From assembly GCA_030625965.1 (NCBI GenBank), contig DAOUPV010000001.1:1-64000 (forward strand): a stretch of DNA of 64,000 nt, in the 5' to 3' direction. The notes under the pieces are model-generated. The model saw only the letters and a program-made list of their open reading frames with translations, was not told the origin of the DNA and made no database searches. A program made the position numbers and the translations under genes. Within the stretch, counting starts at the first letter, position 1; each line of letters opens with the position of its first letter. The DNA comes from Clostridia bacterium (GTDB lineage: Bacteria > Bacillota > TC1 > UBA5767). Shown here in pieces: positions 1 through 64,000 of this stretch.

Positions 1-96
1 CAATCGACTTTCTTCAACGTCGAAGGATACATCTGTTACCGTCCATGGCTCCTGTAATCCGAGTGCGCTCGTAAATAAATCTATCTGACTAAACAT
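1..96 (-). CDS. ISL3-family transposase, N-terminal part (cut by window edge)
   Basis: Only the first 32 codons are in the window; the frame is still open at base 1. The start (MFSQIDLFTSALGLQEPW) matches my recollection of how ISL3-type transposases of Firmicutes begin: a short hydrophobic stretch, then E-P-W before the first beta strand. A GGAGGT ribosome site lies six bases before the chosen ATG at 96; an in-frame ATG at 102 is too close to that site. The zinc-finger and catalytic regions lie outside the window, so neither intactness nor the element's ends can be judged. The family call rests on a short N-terminus and is moderate. Confidence 0.6.
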   Translation of the reverse strand, partial: MFSQIDLFTSALGLQEPWTVTDVSFDVEESRL

Positions 97-234
97 TGAC
101 ATACCTCCATAATTTCAAGTGATTTACCTATGAAAAGTATATCATATATCGGGGATTTCAAAGTATGATCTTGGTTTGTTAATCAGTATGAATCCACACA
201 ATATGAGAAAGAGCCCATTTTTAGCTCAAAAGTA

Positions 235-546
235 TTATGGTAAGATTTTTAAAGACTCTATCAAGTCAATGTTAAGCAGGTGTTCAGTGCCATTTTTGGA
301 GATCTTCAGCCAGTTCTCTTCGATGGCCATGATCTGGACCTGTTTAAAACTACGACCGAATGAGGTAACAATGCTACAACGTTTTCCTATGTATTCCAGG
401 AAGAGATGGTTGGTCATGAGCGTTTCACTCCTTTTCTTGCGTAAACGCTGTATCGTCATCTTCTTCTTCTTGTTCATGGTGGGGAGGATGACAAAGAGCA
501 ACATGAATATGGGTAGATAGATGGCGATGAAACTGGATGATTCCAT
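235..546 (-). CDS. small membrane-anchored hypothetical protein
   Basis: A 103-residue protein. Residues about 5-24 form one hydrophobic membrane segment, followed by a very basic stretch (KKKKMTIQRLRKKR), which suggests that the C-terminal part is cytoplasmic. The remaining 60 residues are a compact, beta-rich looking tail with no motif I recognise. The start is supported by AAGGGGGA eight bases upstream of the ATG. It stands alone between the ISL3 fragment and a gene-free stretch. No function can be assigned. It is taken as real because of the ribosome site, the sensible topology and normal composition. Confidence 0.6.
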   Translation of the reverse strand: MESSSFIAIYLPIFMLLFVILPTMNKKKKMTIQRLRKKRSETLMTNHLFLEYIGKRCSIVTSFGRSFKQVQIMAIEENWLKISKNGTEHLLNIDLIESLKILP

Positions 547-33963: not shown

Positions 33964-34060
33964 GGCGGGAATGTGTGGGAATCGAACCCACCTATGCCAG
34001 GATCACTGCCATACGACTGGAGTTGAAGTCCAGGTGAACCACCAGGTCCAATCCACTCCC
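33963..34060 (-). tRNA. selC: tRNA-Sec (anticodon TCA)
   Basis: A 98-base tRNA on the minus strand. The anticodon stem CTGGA/TCCAG encloses the loop CTTCAAC with anticodon TCA. The variable arm is very long (about 22-25 bases), the acceptor stem begins GGGAGTG, the T-arm is GTGGG-TTCGATT-CCCAC, and CCA is encoded. These are the marks of selenocysteine tRNA, not of a suppressor tRNA. It has its own promoter and terminator. It supports the reading of UGA as Sec in fdhA and selD of this window. Confidence 0.95.
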
Positions 34061-62236: not shown

Positions 62237-62266
62237 TTGACATAATTGGACAATATTAGATATAAT
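62237..62266 (+). promoter_or_regulatory. strong promoter of the c-di-GMP riboswitch leader
   Basis: TTGACA (62237-62242), an 18-base spacer and TATAAT (62261-62266), both perfect consensus. Start is expected near 62273, about 16 bases before the first aptamer. The A+T content rises sharply from here on. Confidence 0.85.
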
Positions 62267-62288
62267 TTGAATATATAAGTAAAGGATT

Positions 62289-62395
62289 GCTTTTCAGCGA
62301 TAAAGGCAAACCCGTCGAAAGGCGGGGGCGCAAAGCCATTGGGCCTACGTACCGTAAGGTATAGGGCAGCCGGTTGCCGAAGGGGAAGCTTTTTT
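62289..62395 (+). ncRNA. cyclic di-GMP-I (GEMM) riboswitch
   Basis: The aptamer core AGGCAAACC-n-CGAAAG-n-GGGGGCGCAAAGCC-n-GGGCCTA is at 62304-62346, followed by the P3 arm with TACC/GGTA and the GGGCAGCCGGTTGCCGA receptor end. The TCGAAAG tetraloop and GCGCAAAGCC are invariant landmarks of class I. A P1 stem can be drawn between GCTTTTC (62289-62295) and GGGGAAGC (62382-62389), directly followed by six T residues, so the P1 helix could itself serve as a terminator when the ligand is bound. Any such OFF behaviour is inference. Confidence 0.92.
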
Positions 62396-62548
62396 GATGC
62401 AAAAATATCACATGTTACTTTTTTGCGATTGGCATTCAAGGTGGACCAGATCTGTCAGTCGAGTAAAGATACAGAAATACCGGTTATCTACATTATTAAT
62501 TCAGAGAGGGGTGAGAGTAAGAGACAACTATAGTCAATTGTGAAGTTG

Positions 62549-62622
62549 ATTGAGGGAATGATGAAGCATGTCTTGTATATGGGCACTTGAGGTATGTGGA
62601 GTTAGTAGTGCAACCGACCTTT
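62549..62622 (+). ncRNA. cyclic di-GMP-II riboswitch, copy 1
   Basis: GATGAAGC, then GGGCACTT and TTAGTAGTGCAACCGACC match the class II consensus as I know it from the clostridial structure. P2 is CATGTCTT (62565-62572) with GAGGTATG (62588-62595), all eight positions pairable with wobbles. P1 is GAGG with CCTT. It differs from copy 2 in the P2 strands while keeping pairing, which is evidence of selection. Its 3' strand CCTTTCT can also pair with AGAAGG, the P1 5' strand of copy 2. Confidence 0.9.
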
Positions 62623-62629
62623 CTTTTAT

Positions 62630-62705
62630 GAGAAGGGGAGCGATGAAATGTATCTTTTAATTGGGCACTTTAGATACATGGAGCTAGTAGTGCAACCGAC
62701 CTTTC
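62630..62705 (+). ncRNA. cyclic di-GMP-II riboswitch, copy 2
   Basis: GATGAAATG, GGGCACTT and CTAGTAGTGCAACCGACC define the class II aptamer. P2 is ATGTATC with GATACAT, a perfect seven-base helix different in sequence from copy 1. P1 is AGAAGG with CCTTTCT. The same CCTTTCTT (62699-62706) is perfectly complementary to AAGAAAGG (62721-62728), the ribosome site of the next gene, so ligand binding should free the ribosome site (translational ON switch; inference). Confidence 0.92.
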
Positions 62706-62738
62706 TTTGAACATGAGTTTGAAGAAAGGAGAATAAAA

Positions 62739-63673
62739 ATGAATATGAAAAATATGACAACAAGATTGCGACAATTTTTGTCAATCGTCGTATCGCATAT
62801 TTTTGTTCTCGGTACATATTGGCCCGCAATGGCCTCAGATAGTTTGAATGCGATTACTCCGATCTCTGATTCAGTTAAAGAAACAAATACGAATCAGTAC
62901 GGTCATTCAGTATGAAAATAGAGAGAATCTCTATATCCGGTTTATTTCTGCATTGCCGGAAGGTCTTTTGAATAGAATCGTTTCAGAACCGGGAAAGAAT
63001 AGCGAAGTGTTGGGTGCAGGGAATCAAGCTATATCTGTGTACGGATGTTTCAACGGTGGTTGATTACTGAGAAGGCAGATCCCTGAACTCAAGATCCGGA
63101 CGGAGGTGGCAATCGAAAACCTGATGGTGGCGACCGTACATGTAATCCAGGAGGTGGTGACGGTACGCGGAATCCTGATGGTGGAGATACGCAGAATCCA
63201 GACGGCGTTGATGGATCACAGAATCCCGACAGTGGTGACGGATTGCAGAATCCTGATAGTAGTGGCAGAATGCAACATCCCGATGGTGATGGGCCGCAGA
63301 ATCCGGACGATGGCAGCTATGGTACGCTGAAATCGACGGTGGCGATGGCACCCAGAACCTTGACGGATGTGCGGGCACTCTGGACCACGATATGGATTGT
63401 AGCATTCGGAACCCTGATTGTGGCACATGGATGAAGAATCCCAATTGTGGCAATGGAACGCAGAATCCTGATGGCGGTGATGGAACGCGGAATCCTGATG
63501 GTGGTAATGGGACGCAGAATAGAGCTGGAATGCAGAAATCCGGCGGCTGCGGTGGCATCCAGAACCCTGAAGACTAACTACACGGCGTTACTCAGAATCT
63601 TGATGGCGGCGAGGGTTTTCAGAGCCCTGACGGTGGCGGTGGCATCCTGAGCCAAGATGAGGAAAACGAATAG
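62739..63673 (+). pseudogene. secreted Asn-Pro-Asp-Gly repeat protein, broken by frameshifts and a stop
   Basis: An AAAGGAG site leads to ATG 62739 and a clear signal peptide (basic start, hydrophobic LSIVVSHIFVLGTYW, cleavage after AMA near residue 32). The frame stops at 62913 after 58 codons. The +1 frame then carries TVIQYENRENLYIRF up to a stop near 63061. The original frame resumes from about 63090 with repeats built on DG-x-QNPDGG; near 63330 the repeats shift frame again and run to a TAA at 63575, beyond which the same frame continues (VTQNLDGGEGFQSPDGG, then SQDEENE) to TAG 63671. So at least three frame changes and one stop separate pieces of one gene. It would have encoded a c-di-GMP-controlled surface or secreted protein. 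Confidence 0.75.
63090..63640 (+). repeat. tandem degenerate repeats encoding (G)DGTQNPDG
   Basis: About a dozen copies of a unit of roughly 24-33 bases, e.g. GGTGACGGTACGCGGAATCC and its variants, recur across this stretch. Unit length varies (8-12 codons), and some units have lost codons or single bases, which explains the frame changes. Confidence 0.8.
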
Positions 63674-64000
63674 AAATAATAACACCTGGAAGAGACAGAA
63701 GAGCTGAAAAGGAAAATAATTTTATAGTTGTAATTATGGAGGAAGAGCCAGCACTGGCTGTTCCTGAATCTGAAATGGATGACGAGCTCCCCCCTGTACA
63801 AGAACCAAGGCTTTACCATATACAGGGGTGGCTCACGAAGGACTGACAGGTTTTTAATGTCAGTCGGTACGCATTGTGTAAGAAAAAATATATGCTGATG
63901 TTGGATAACCTGTATAAATAAAAGCAAGCAAGCAAGTGAAAAGGTGGAAGACAGAGAACGTTGTGAAAATCCATGACGTTCTATGTCTTCCTTTTTCTAT
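63674..64000 (+). other. 327-base tail with stacked hairpins and no supported gene
   Basis: Three hairpins follow one another: AGCCAG/CTGGCT with outer GGAA/TTCC (63741-63764), GAGC...CCCCTGTA with TACAGGGG...GCTC (63784-63834), and GACTGACA/TGTCAGTC (63841-63865). A short frame, 63736-63846, reads MEEEPALAVPESEMDDELPP and on, acidic and proline-rich like the linker before a cell-wall anchor, but it has no ribosome site. It may be the decayed 3' end of the secreted-protein gene or an unrelated structured RNA. Confidence 0.45.
63946..63996 (+). terminator. long terminator hairpin at the right edge
   Basis: GGAAGACA-g-AGAACGT pairs with ACGTTCT-a-TGTCTTCC around a 14-base loop and is followed by five T residues. 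It probably closes the transcript begun at the riboswitch promoter. Confidence 0.88.

What the first reader, a model, noticed from the sequence alone, without database searches (positions are those of the whole stretch)
62237..62740. Three c-di-GMP riboswitches of two different classes in one leader (I, II, II)
One perfect consensus promoter drives a leader of about 465 bases with a class I (GEMM) aptamer followed by two tandem class II aptamers and then a ribosome site. Tandem copies of one class are known, but I do not know of a leader that stacks class I with two class II sensors. Unrelated folds with different affinities in series would allow graded or gated responses to one second messenger. 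This is the most unusual structure in the window.
Basis: partly seen in the sequence, partly recalled or inferred. Interest (0 to 1): 0.93.

Follow-up and report, generated by a model that had tools for sequence, protein, structure and literature searches.

The report
Opposed c-di-GMP sensors on one message
One bacterial message leader holds three matches to RNA sensors of two unrelated kinds for a single signal, c-di-GMP; the first would likely stop the message being made when the signal is high, while the other two are predicted to let it be translated only when the signal is high, and the same order stands before uninterrupted surface-protein genes in three other bacteria.

Summary
Confirmed and extended. 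All three aptamers pass Rfam cut-offs: class I 62295-62381 (85.8 bits), II-1 62547-62628 (69.4), II-2 62627-62710 (83.8), behind one 12/12 consensus promoter. The design recurs: I-I-II-II at a second locus of this genome and in Peptococcaceae UBA5767; I(GGC)-II-II in Geosporobacter and Anaerovirgula. All four sister loci lead into uninterrupted repeat proteins with an LPXTG-type end; the gene behind the window copy is broken. Class I: helix P1 runs straight into a T-tract and no separate terminator was found, as in this genome's flgB leader; bound class I likely terminates transcription (OFF). Class II: two copies of the strand CCUUUCUU can each mask the ribosome site; in folding models of 4 of 5 leaders, folding II-2 alone leaves the site masked by II-1's copy, and folding both exposes it clearly in 3 of those 4: a predicted translational ON switch needing both. 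Best reading: c-di-GMP blocks making the mRNA yet is needed to translate it, giving a band-pass, or a pulse when c-di-GMP rises. Binding and polarity are untested. Homotypic c-di-GMP tandems and SAM bi-mechanism tandems are known; my searches found no report of class I plus class II in one leader.

The parts
62237..62266 (+). sigma-70-type promoter TTGACA-18-TATAAT, 12 of 12
   Evidence: letters re-read. Start of transcription not mapped.
62289..62295 (+). class I helix P1, 5' strand GCTTTTC
62295..62381 (+). class I c-di-GMP aptamer (RF01051)
   Evidence: 85.8 bits
62383..62389 (+). class I helix P1, 3' strand GGGAAGC, ends where the T-tract begins
62390..62395 (+). T-tract: with P1 the likely ligand-dependent terminator
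   Evidence: function inferred
62503..62515 (+). Shine-Dalgarno-like element with no start codon at a usual distance
   Evidence: 5 of 500 shuffles of the spacer as good; function unknown
62545..62628 (+). class II aptamer II-1 (Rfam match 62547-62628; weak P1 of 4 inner pairs)
   Evidence: 69.4 bits; extent of P1
62618..62625 (+). Y1: 3' P1 strand of II-1, CCTTTCTT, first anti-SD copy
62630..62637 (+). R1: 5' P1 strand of II-2, GAGAAGGG; pairs with Y1 (linker hairpin) or Y2 (P1 of II-2)
62627..62710 (+). class II aptamer II-2 (RF01786)
   Evidence: 83.8 bits
62700..62707 (+). Y2: 3' P1 strand of II-2, CCTTTCTT, second anti-SD copy
62700..62729 (+). SD-masking hairpin, 13 pairs (CCTTTCTTTGAAC / GTTTGAAGAAAGG)
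62726..62731 (+). Shine-Dalgarno core AAGGAG
62739..62915 (+). 58-codon remnant of the controlled gene: start codon and signal-peptide-like N-terminus, then a stop
62739..63890 (+). broken relative of the LPXTG-type repeat protein; pieces match the sister protein in all three plus-strand frames
   Evidence: tblastn pieces, stops left in place

Best explanation
The leader carries class I, class II and class II c-di-GMP aptamers in series, and it likely acts as an incoherent switch in which high c-di-GMP would end transcription at class I but would be required at both class II aptamers for translation. Stage 1 (inferred): bound class I closes helix P1, whose 3' strand GGGAAGC runs into TTTTTT, making a terminator; unbound, no good hairpin abuts the T-tract and polymerase reads on. 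Stage 2 (predicted by folding): five alternating strands R0-Y1-R1-Y2-R2 (R0, 5' P1 of II-1; Y1 and Y2, CCUUUCUU; R1, 5' P1 of II-2; R2, the SD) pair Y1:R1 and Y2:R2 without ligand. Folding of II-2 alone takes Y2 but frees Y1, which then masks the SD; only with both aptamers folded (R0:Y1, R1:Y2) is R2 left over. The mRNA would thus be made at low c-di-GMP, kept silent, and translated when c-di-GMP rises, while new synthesis stops: a band-pass at steady state if the two stages differ in affinity, or a self-limiting burst on a rise. In the sister loci the output is a wall-anchored surface protein; the window copy now leads into a broken gene, so its own output is probably lost.
For: Aptamers. 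Recurrence: own C141, G001, which is Peptococcaceae UBA5767 contig DIET01000019.1 (4500 of 4500 bases identical), Geosporobacter and Anaerovirgula. Class I OFF: T-run starts 8-10 nt past the aptamer in 16 of 21 class I loci printed, with a P1 helix ending at or within 4 nt of its start in 13 of those 16; P1 keeps 94.6% of cells paired against at most 82.1% when slid; no sense-strand terminator-like hairpin in any of the five leaders, whereas the scan does find one behind class I of C45 and C11; best local hairpin at the T-tract is 0 to -5 kcal/mol in six of the seven composite-leader class I copies; FlgB gene (TIGR01396, 84 bits) of the same genome and of family member G003 has the same P1-T platform; in C. 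difficile 11 of 12 class I are OFF, flgB included (PMC3649979). Class II ON: 13-pair SD hairpin that shares the 3' P1 strand (96.0% of cells paired, at most 68.0% when slid); states model: with II-2 alone folded the SD core stays paired to Y1 in C40, C141, G001 and Geosporobacter; with both folded it is unpaired 0.96, 0.67 and 0.85 in C40, C141 and Geosporobacter (stricter constraint). Kinetic sketch.
Against: No binding, termination or translation was measured. Covariation is weak: compensated changes are 0 to 1 pair per helix and shuffles do as well, so support is preserved pairing, not covariation. Anaerovirgula does not show the second lock (SD paired to Y1 0.02, unpaired 0.61 with II-2 alone; coupling 0.1 kcal/mol), and G001 with both folded is unpaired only 0.33 (0.52 with the looser constraint); with the looser constraint C40 and C141 fall to 0.52 and 0.53. 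P1 is weak for a terminator (1 to 3 G-C pairs). G001a has a local hairpin of -10.3 at its T-tract, and a separate-terminator control, C11a, only -5.2, so the split is not clean; the C12a P1 is not next to its T-tract and in Geosporobacter the best contiguous helix runs into the T-tract. Among 11 flgB leaders with class I looked at, only 2 use the P1-T platform. One of 12 C. difficile class I switches is ON. In Geosporobacter and Anaerovirgula class I is the GGC variant, whose ligand I did not check. The window gene is broken.
Confidence: 0.6

Rival explanations
1. Coherent bi-mechanism switch: bound class I favours read-through (ON) and the class II pair favours translation (ON), so that the leader simply gives a sharp, low-leak ON response.
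For: Same-ligand tandems of two classes with one transcriptional and one translational platform are known for SAM (PMC9481103), there with both stages of the same sign; one C. difficile class I is ON; adhesins are usually made at high c-di-GMP (C. difficile class II).
Against: An ON class I needs a terminator that ligand prevents; the scans found no sense-strand hairpin terminator in the five leaders and no consistent P1-independent hairpin at the T-tract (exception G001a). The same platform precedes flgB in the same genome.
Confidence: 0.17
2. Two neighbouring units, not one device: class I yields a short terminated RNA or is a leftover of another gene's leader, and the class II pair has its own start site.
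For: In G340 a class I lies 118 nt before a class II where the intervening transglutaminase gene of its relatives G180 and G380 is reduced to a remnant, so such juxtaposition by deletion does happen; the spacer is 152-301 nt.
Against: Class I before II-II in five loci of four genomes, each with its promoter-like sites upstream of class I and none listed on the sense strand between class I and II-1; no shared ORF in the spacer by reading. The scan covers only one promoter type.
Confidence: 0.13
3. In the window itself the leader is a relic: sensing may work but nothing useful is made.
For: Frames broken by several stops and shifts between pieces that match the sister protein. An assembly fault cannot be excluded from one sequence.
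Against: Aptamers, both anti-SD copies, SD and promoter are all well kept. This rival is compatible with the main explanation, which rests on the sister loci.
Confidence: 0.1

Closest known systems
Tandem c-di-GMP-II riboswitches before surface-anchor genes (59 doublets, 9 triplets in PMC9481103)
   Same: Abutting class II pair before a surface-anchored protein gene.
   Different: No class I upstream is mentioned there; here a class I precedes the pair, the platform is translational, and two anti-SD copies form a predicted double lock rather than independent switches.
Tandem c-di-GMP-I riboswitches (347 doublets, 12 triplets in PMC9481103; B. thuringiensis Bc3-5, PMC4759541, search listing only)
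   Same: Class I, in the sister loci two in series, each with its own T-tract.
   Different: Followed by class II aptamers of an unrelated fold.
Bi-mechanism SAM-II/SAM-V tandem riboswitches (PMC9481103)
   Same: Two unrelated aptamer classes for one ligand; first transcriptional, second translational.
   Different: There both stages are OFF; here the stages are predicted to have opposite sign. Ligand is a second messenger.
Bc1 class I riboswitch with 'incoherent transcription-translation dual regulation' (PMC11218506)
   Same: Opposite effects on transcription and translation in one c-di-GMP leader.
   Different: One aptamer and two terminators; no response to c-di-GMP seen in vivo; no class II.
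C. difficile CD2830/CD2831 pair (PMC3649979)
   Same: Class I OFF and class II ON switches serve a surface-adhesion programme.
   Different: Separate switches on two neighbouring genes, not in series on one leader.

Membership tests
c-di-GMP-I riboswitch (RF01051) | covariance-model score over the curated cut-off | tested here: met
   85.8 against 35 bits
c-di-GMP-I riboswitch (RF01051) | binds c-di-GMP | not testable with these tools
   needs in-line probing
c-di-GMP-II riboswitch (RF01786) | covariance-model score over the curated cut-off, both copies | tested here: met
   69.4 and 83.8 against 53.5 bits
c-di-GMP-II riboswitch (RF01786) | binds c-di-GMP | not testable with these tools
   needs in-line probing
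Tandem bi-mechanism riboswitch (definition in PMC9481103) | two riboswitches for the same ligand before one gene, no ORF between, gap at most 300 nt | tested here: met
   gaps 165 nt (window), 267, 152, 229; G001 is 301 nt, one over that paper's limit; no shared ORF in the spacers by reading
Tandem bi-mechanism riboswitch (definition in PMC9481103) | one transcriptional and one translational platform | tested here: inconclusive
   anatomy fits; no functional test
LPXTG-anchored surface protein (controlled gene) | C-terminal LPXTG sorting signal, TIGR01167 cut-off 15.9 bits | tested here: inconclusive
   over the cut-off in C141 18.2, Geosporobacter 16.7, Anaerovirgula 17.7; under it in G001 13.1, though LPNTG is readable; Pfam PF00746 under cut-off in C141. 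In the window copy only a broken remnant
Self-splicing (group I) c-di-GMP-II allosteric ribozyme | group I intron beside the aptamer | tested here: not met
   no intron family match in the window leader

The most novel reading that the evidence does not exclude
An RNA-only change detector for a second messenger: the adhesin mRNA is stockpiled while c-di-GMP is low because class I lets it be made, stays silent because two anti-SD strands mask its ribosome site, and fires a single burst of surface protein when c-di-GMP rises, while class I shuts off resupply. Absolute levels matter less than the rise.
Probability: 0.35. Interest if true: 0.92.

Novelty: new variant of a known kind. Interest (0 to 1): 0.75.

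Why it matters
If true, one RNA leader, without any protein, compares the past with the present level of a second messenger: past level sets how much mRNA exists, present level sets whether it is read. That is a new wiring for riboswitches, which are known as cooperative, digital or logic devices with stages of matching purpose. It would also give a reason why clostridia keep two unrelated c-di-GMP folds, and the double anti-SD lock is a simple way to make an AND switch from repeated aptamers that could be tested directly and reused in sensors.

Tried and rejected
Rejected: (1) chance or false aptamer call: all three pass. (2) Unique to the window: rejected by recurrence. (3) Composite leaders in G340, G181, G180, G380: rejected as one leader; a full transglutaminase-like ORF (G180, G380) or its remnant (G340), or a short ORF behind an SD (G181, my reading of the printed sequence), lies between. 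(4) G024, G028 and eight others: II and I are 2.3-3.4 kb apart. (5) Spacer SD-like element as start of a conserved leader peptide: no ORF shared by the five leaders by reading. (6) Strict pairwise covariation as proof: not found. (7) Phage or plasmid origin of the leader: pattern scan of viral contigs 0 matches, phages no match, plasmids three short partial matches covering 11-15%.

Led nowhere: protein search with residues 1-150 of the C141 protein returned only itself; structure of its N-terminal domain from 2 sequences has mean pLDDT 64, all-beta, and no PDB match at E 0.001 or better; band-pass literature search returned nothing relevant.

Limits: the phylum survey compared listed positions by eye; weaker class II matches were not listed. 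One search ended with an error before its 22nd row (G002, HD-domain gene); one search failed and was rerun with another motif.

Full report
What is there. Rfam at gathering thresholds places a class I aptamer at 62295-62381 and a class II aptamer at 62627-62710. A single-family search of the whole genome adds the first class II, 62547-62628, 69.4 bits; it overlaps the second by 2 nt, which is most likely why cmscan hides it. One 12-of-12 promoter stands at 62237-62266 and no other sense promoter-like site is listed before II-1. The open frame that starts at the SD-linked ATG, 62739, stops after 58 codons; further on, pieces in all three plus-strand frames match the intact sister protein, down to an ALPYTG remnant. 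So the sensors are well kept but the gene behind them is broken in this copy.

Recurrence. The same genome (unnamed, 148 contigs) has 11 class I and 5 class II matches. At C141 they form I-I-II-II. In G001, same genus, the order is again I-I-II-II; its contig is DIET01000019.1 of Peptococcaceae bacterium UBA5767 (4500 of 4500 compared bases identical). The third genus member held, G002, has class I (4 matches) but no class II match. A pattern for abutting class II aptamers, scanned over one genome for each of 84,980 species, gave 5 stretches. Of these, 3 have class I upstream in the same leader: UBA5767, Geosporobacter ferrireducens and Anaerovirgula multivorans, the last two with the GGC variant of class I; Proteocatella sphenisci has II-II without class I in the stretch held, and the Slackia MAG has a single class II just under its cut-off. 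The scan may leave out records of the window's own genome. Gaps between the last class I and II-1 are 165 (window), 267, 301, 152 and 229 nt.

How rare. In 398 genomes drawn from the phylum, 107 have a class II match at E 0.001 or better. I searched all 107 for class I (G000, 20, 86) and compared listed positions by eye. Only G000 (two loci) and G001 have class I and class II in one leader without an intervening ORF. G340 (118 nt) and G181 (409 nt) come close but have a gene remnant or short ORF between; G180 and G380 have a transglutaminase-like ORF between. Weak class II matches were cut from the listing, so this is a lower bound.

The controlled genes. All four sister loci lead into frames without internal stops. 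They share a signal-peptide-like start, acidic or proline-rich repeats and an LPNTG or LPKTG end. The LPXTG model TIGR01167 passes its cut-off of 15.9 bits in C141 (18.2), Geosporobacter (16.7) and Anaerovirgula (17.7) but not in G001 (13.1). Downstream in Anaerovirgula is a sortase (PF04203, 78.7 bits). The proteins are related within the genus (55% identity over 141 residues); the two outside proteins look alike in plan only. Sub-cut-off matches of the repeat parts to unrelated families were ignored.

Class I platform. In 16 of 21 class I loci printed from the genus, Geosporobacter and Anaerovirgula, the T-run begins 8 to 10 nt after the counting point at the aptamer's end; in 13 of those 16 a P1 helix ends at, or within 4 nt past, the start of the T-run; the exceptions are C12a, Geosporobacter and one copy of G001 C41. 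In the other 5 the T-run is 24 to 54 nt away (its 22nd row failed). In eight aligned cases P1 keeps 94.6% of cells paired, at most 82.1% when slid, but shuffles do as well for compensated changes. The scan finds no sense-strand hairpin terminator in any of the five composite leaders, while it finds them behind C45 and C11. The best short hairpin abutting the T-tract is 0, 0, 0, -2.3, -3.8, -5.0 and -10.3 kcal/mol in the seven composite class I copies (the last is G001a), against -5.2 and -12.4 to -18.1 in five separate-terminator copies. The own-genome gene behind the C132 class I is FlgB (TIGR01396, 84 bits, cut-off 59.05), and its leader has the P1-T platform, as does that of G003, the same family. 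Of 11 flgB leaders with class I that I looked at (7 found by Rfam among 30 fetched flgB loci, plus 4 picked from listed positions), only these 2 do. In C. difficile, class I switches are OFF for all but one of 12, flgB included, and class II are ON (PMC3649979, section and passages; PMC11477304, passages). I infer that bound class I terminates here.

Class II platform. The 3' P1 strand of II-2, CCUUUCUU, also forms a hairpin of 13 or more pairs with the SD in each of the five leaders; in six aligned leaders, Proteocatella included, 96.0% of cells pair against at most 68.0% when slid. The 3' P1 strand of II-1 is nearly the same sequence and can pair with the 5' P1 strand of II-2 (97.2%) or with the SD (94.4%). 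Each strand serves two or three helices, which may be why compensated changes are few. In a four-state folding model, with no ligand or II-1 alone the SD core pairs with II-2's strand in 5 of 5 leaders. With II-2 alone it moves to II-1's strand in 4 of 5 (not Anaerovirgula). With both, the core is unpaired 0.96 (window), 0.67 (C141), 0.33 (G001), 0.85 (Geosporobacter) and 0.68 (Anaerovirgula) under the stricter constraint, and 0.52, 0.53, 0.52, 0.86 and 0.72 under the looser one. Coupling is -3.0, -2.4, -3.9, -3.4 and 0.1 kcal/mol (stricter). Pseudoknots and ligand energy are not in the model. The lone class II of the genome, at C128, instead has a terminator sharing its 3' P1 strand, again an ON design.

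Combined behaviour. With class I OFF on transcription and the class II pair ON on translation, steady output is a band: peak 0.15 of maximum with equal affinities and one class I, 0.46 if class I binds ten times more weakly. After a step from low to high c-di-GMP the same model gives a translation peak of 0.89 to 0.98 and a fall to 0.001 to 0.09 within an hour for affinity ratios 0.1 to 10 (5-min mRNA half-life assumed). These are illustrations, not data.

A further element. In all five spacers the best match to the 16S tail is an SD-like run (AGRGGGGTGAG, AGGAGGTGA, GGAGGTGGG) 31 to 165 nt before II-1; 5, 53, 9, 4 and 16 of 500 shuffled spacers do as well, so C141 alone is not convincing. No ORF is shared behind it. 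SD runs without ORFs can stabilise mRNA (STAB-SD, Agaisse and Lereclus 1996, seen only as a reference-list entry in PMC3997798), which would suit a stored message; this is conjecture.

Literature. The 2022 survey of tandem riboswitches (PMC9481103; passages and its methods section) lists homotypic c-di-GMP-I and c-di-GMP-II tandems, defines bi-mechanism tandems and names only SAM examples. A 2025 survey (PMC12452182; passages) pools both c-di-GMP classes into one family, so mixed cases could be hidden in its tables, which I could not read. Searches, over open-licence PMC papers only, showed no report of class I plus class II in one leader. Subscription papers are not covered. PMC11218506 (abstract and one section) describes an incoherent transcription-translation effect in a single class I leader.

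Verdict. Real, conserved across three genera in at least four genomes, and a new variant of a known kind. What is shown: aptamer matches, order, recurrence, strand complementarities, gene types. What is inferred: binding, class I polarity, the double lock, and pulse behaviour.

Noticed in passing
L047 (G000:C128) 56-407, minus strand: A lone class II aptamer with its own terminator is followed by a group II intron match (RF02001, 66.9 bits) that begins about 100 nt past the aptamer; from memory, class C group II introns favour sites behind terminators. The contig ends there.
   Followed up: no
window 62503-62515 and the spacers of L046, L054, L064, L065: SD-like run without a shared ORF between class I and II-1 in 5 of 5 leaders.
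   Followed up: partly
G024, G028, G109, G142, G169, G171, G243, G266, G287, G393: A class II and, 2.3 to 3.4 kb further on the same strand, a class I: apparently two neighbouring genes each with its own switch class, in several families.
   Followed up: no
L067 (G340): Class I left 118 nt before a class II where relatives keep a transglutaminase-like gene between: a possible way in which mixed leaders arise.
   Followed up: partly
L060, L061, L048: Two or three class I aptamers in series, each with a T-tract close behind, before a transglutaminase-like secreted protein in all three genus members held.
   Followed up: partly
window 33967-34060, minus strand: Selenocysteine tRNA (RF01852, 64.8 bits).
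   Followed up: no
L046 2820-3170: N-terminal domain of the surface protein: all-beta low-confidence model, no sequence relative returned by a search of residues 1-150 other than itself, though G001 has a 58% identical domain.
   Followed up: partly
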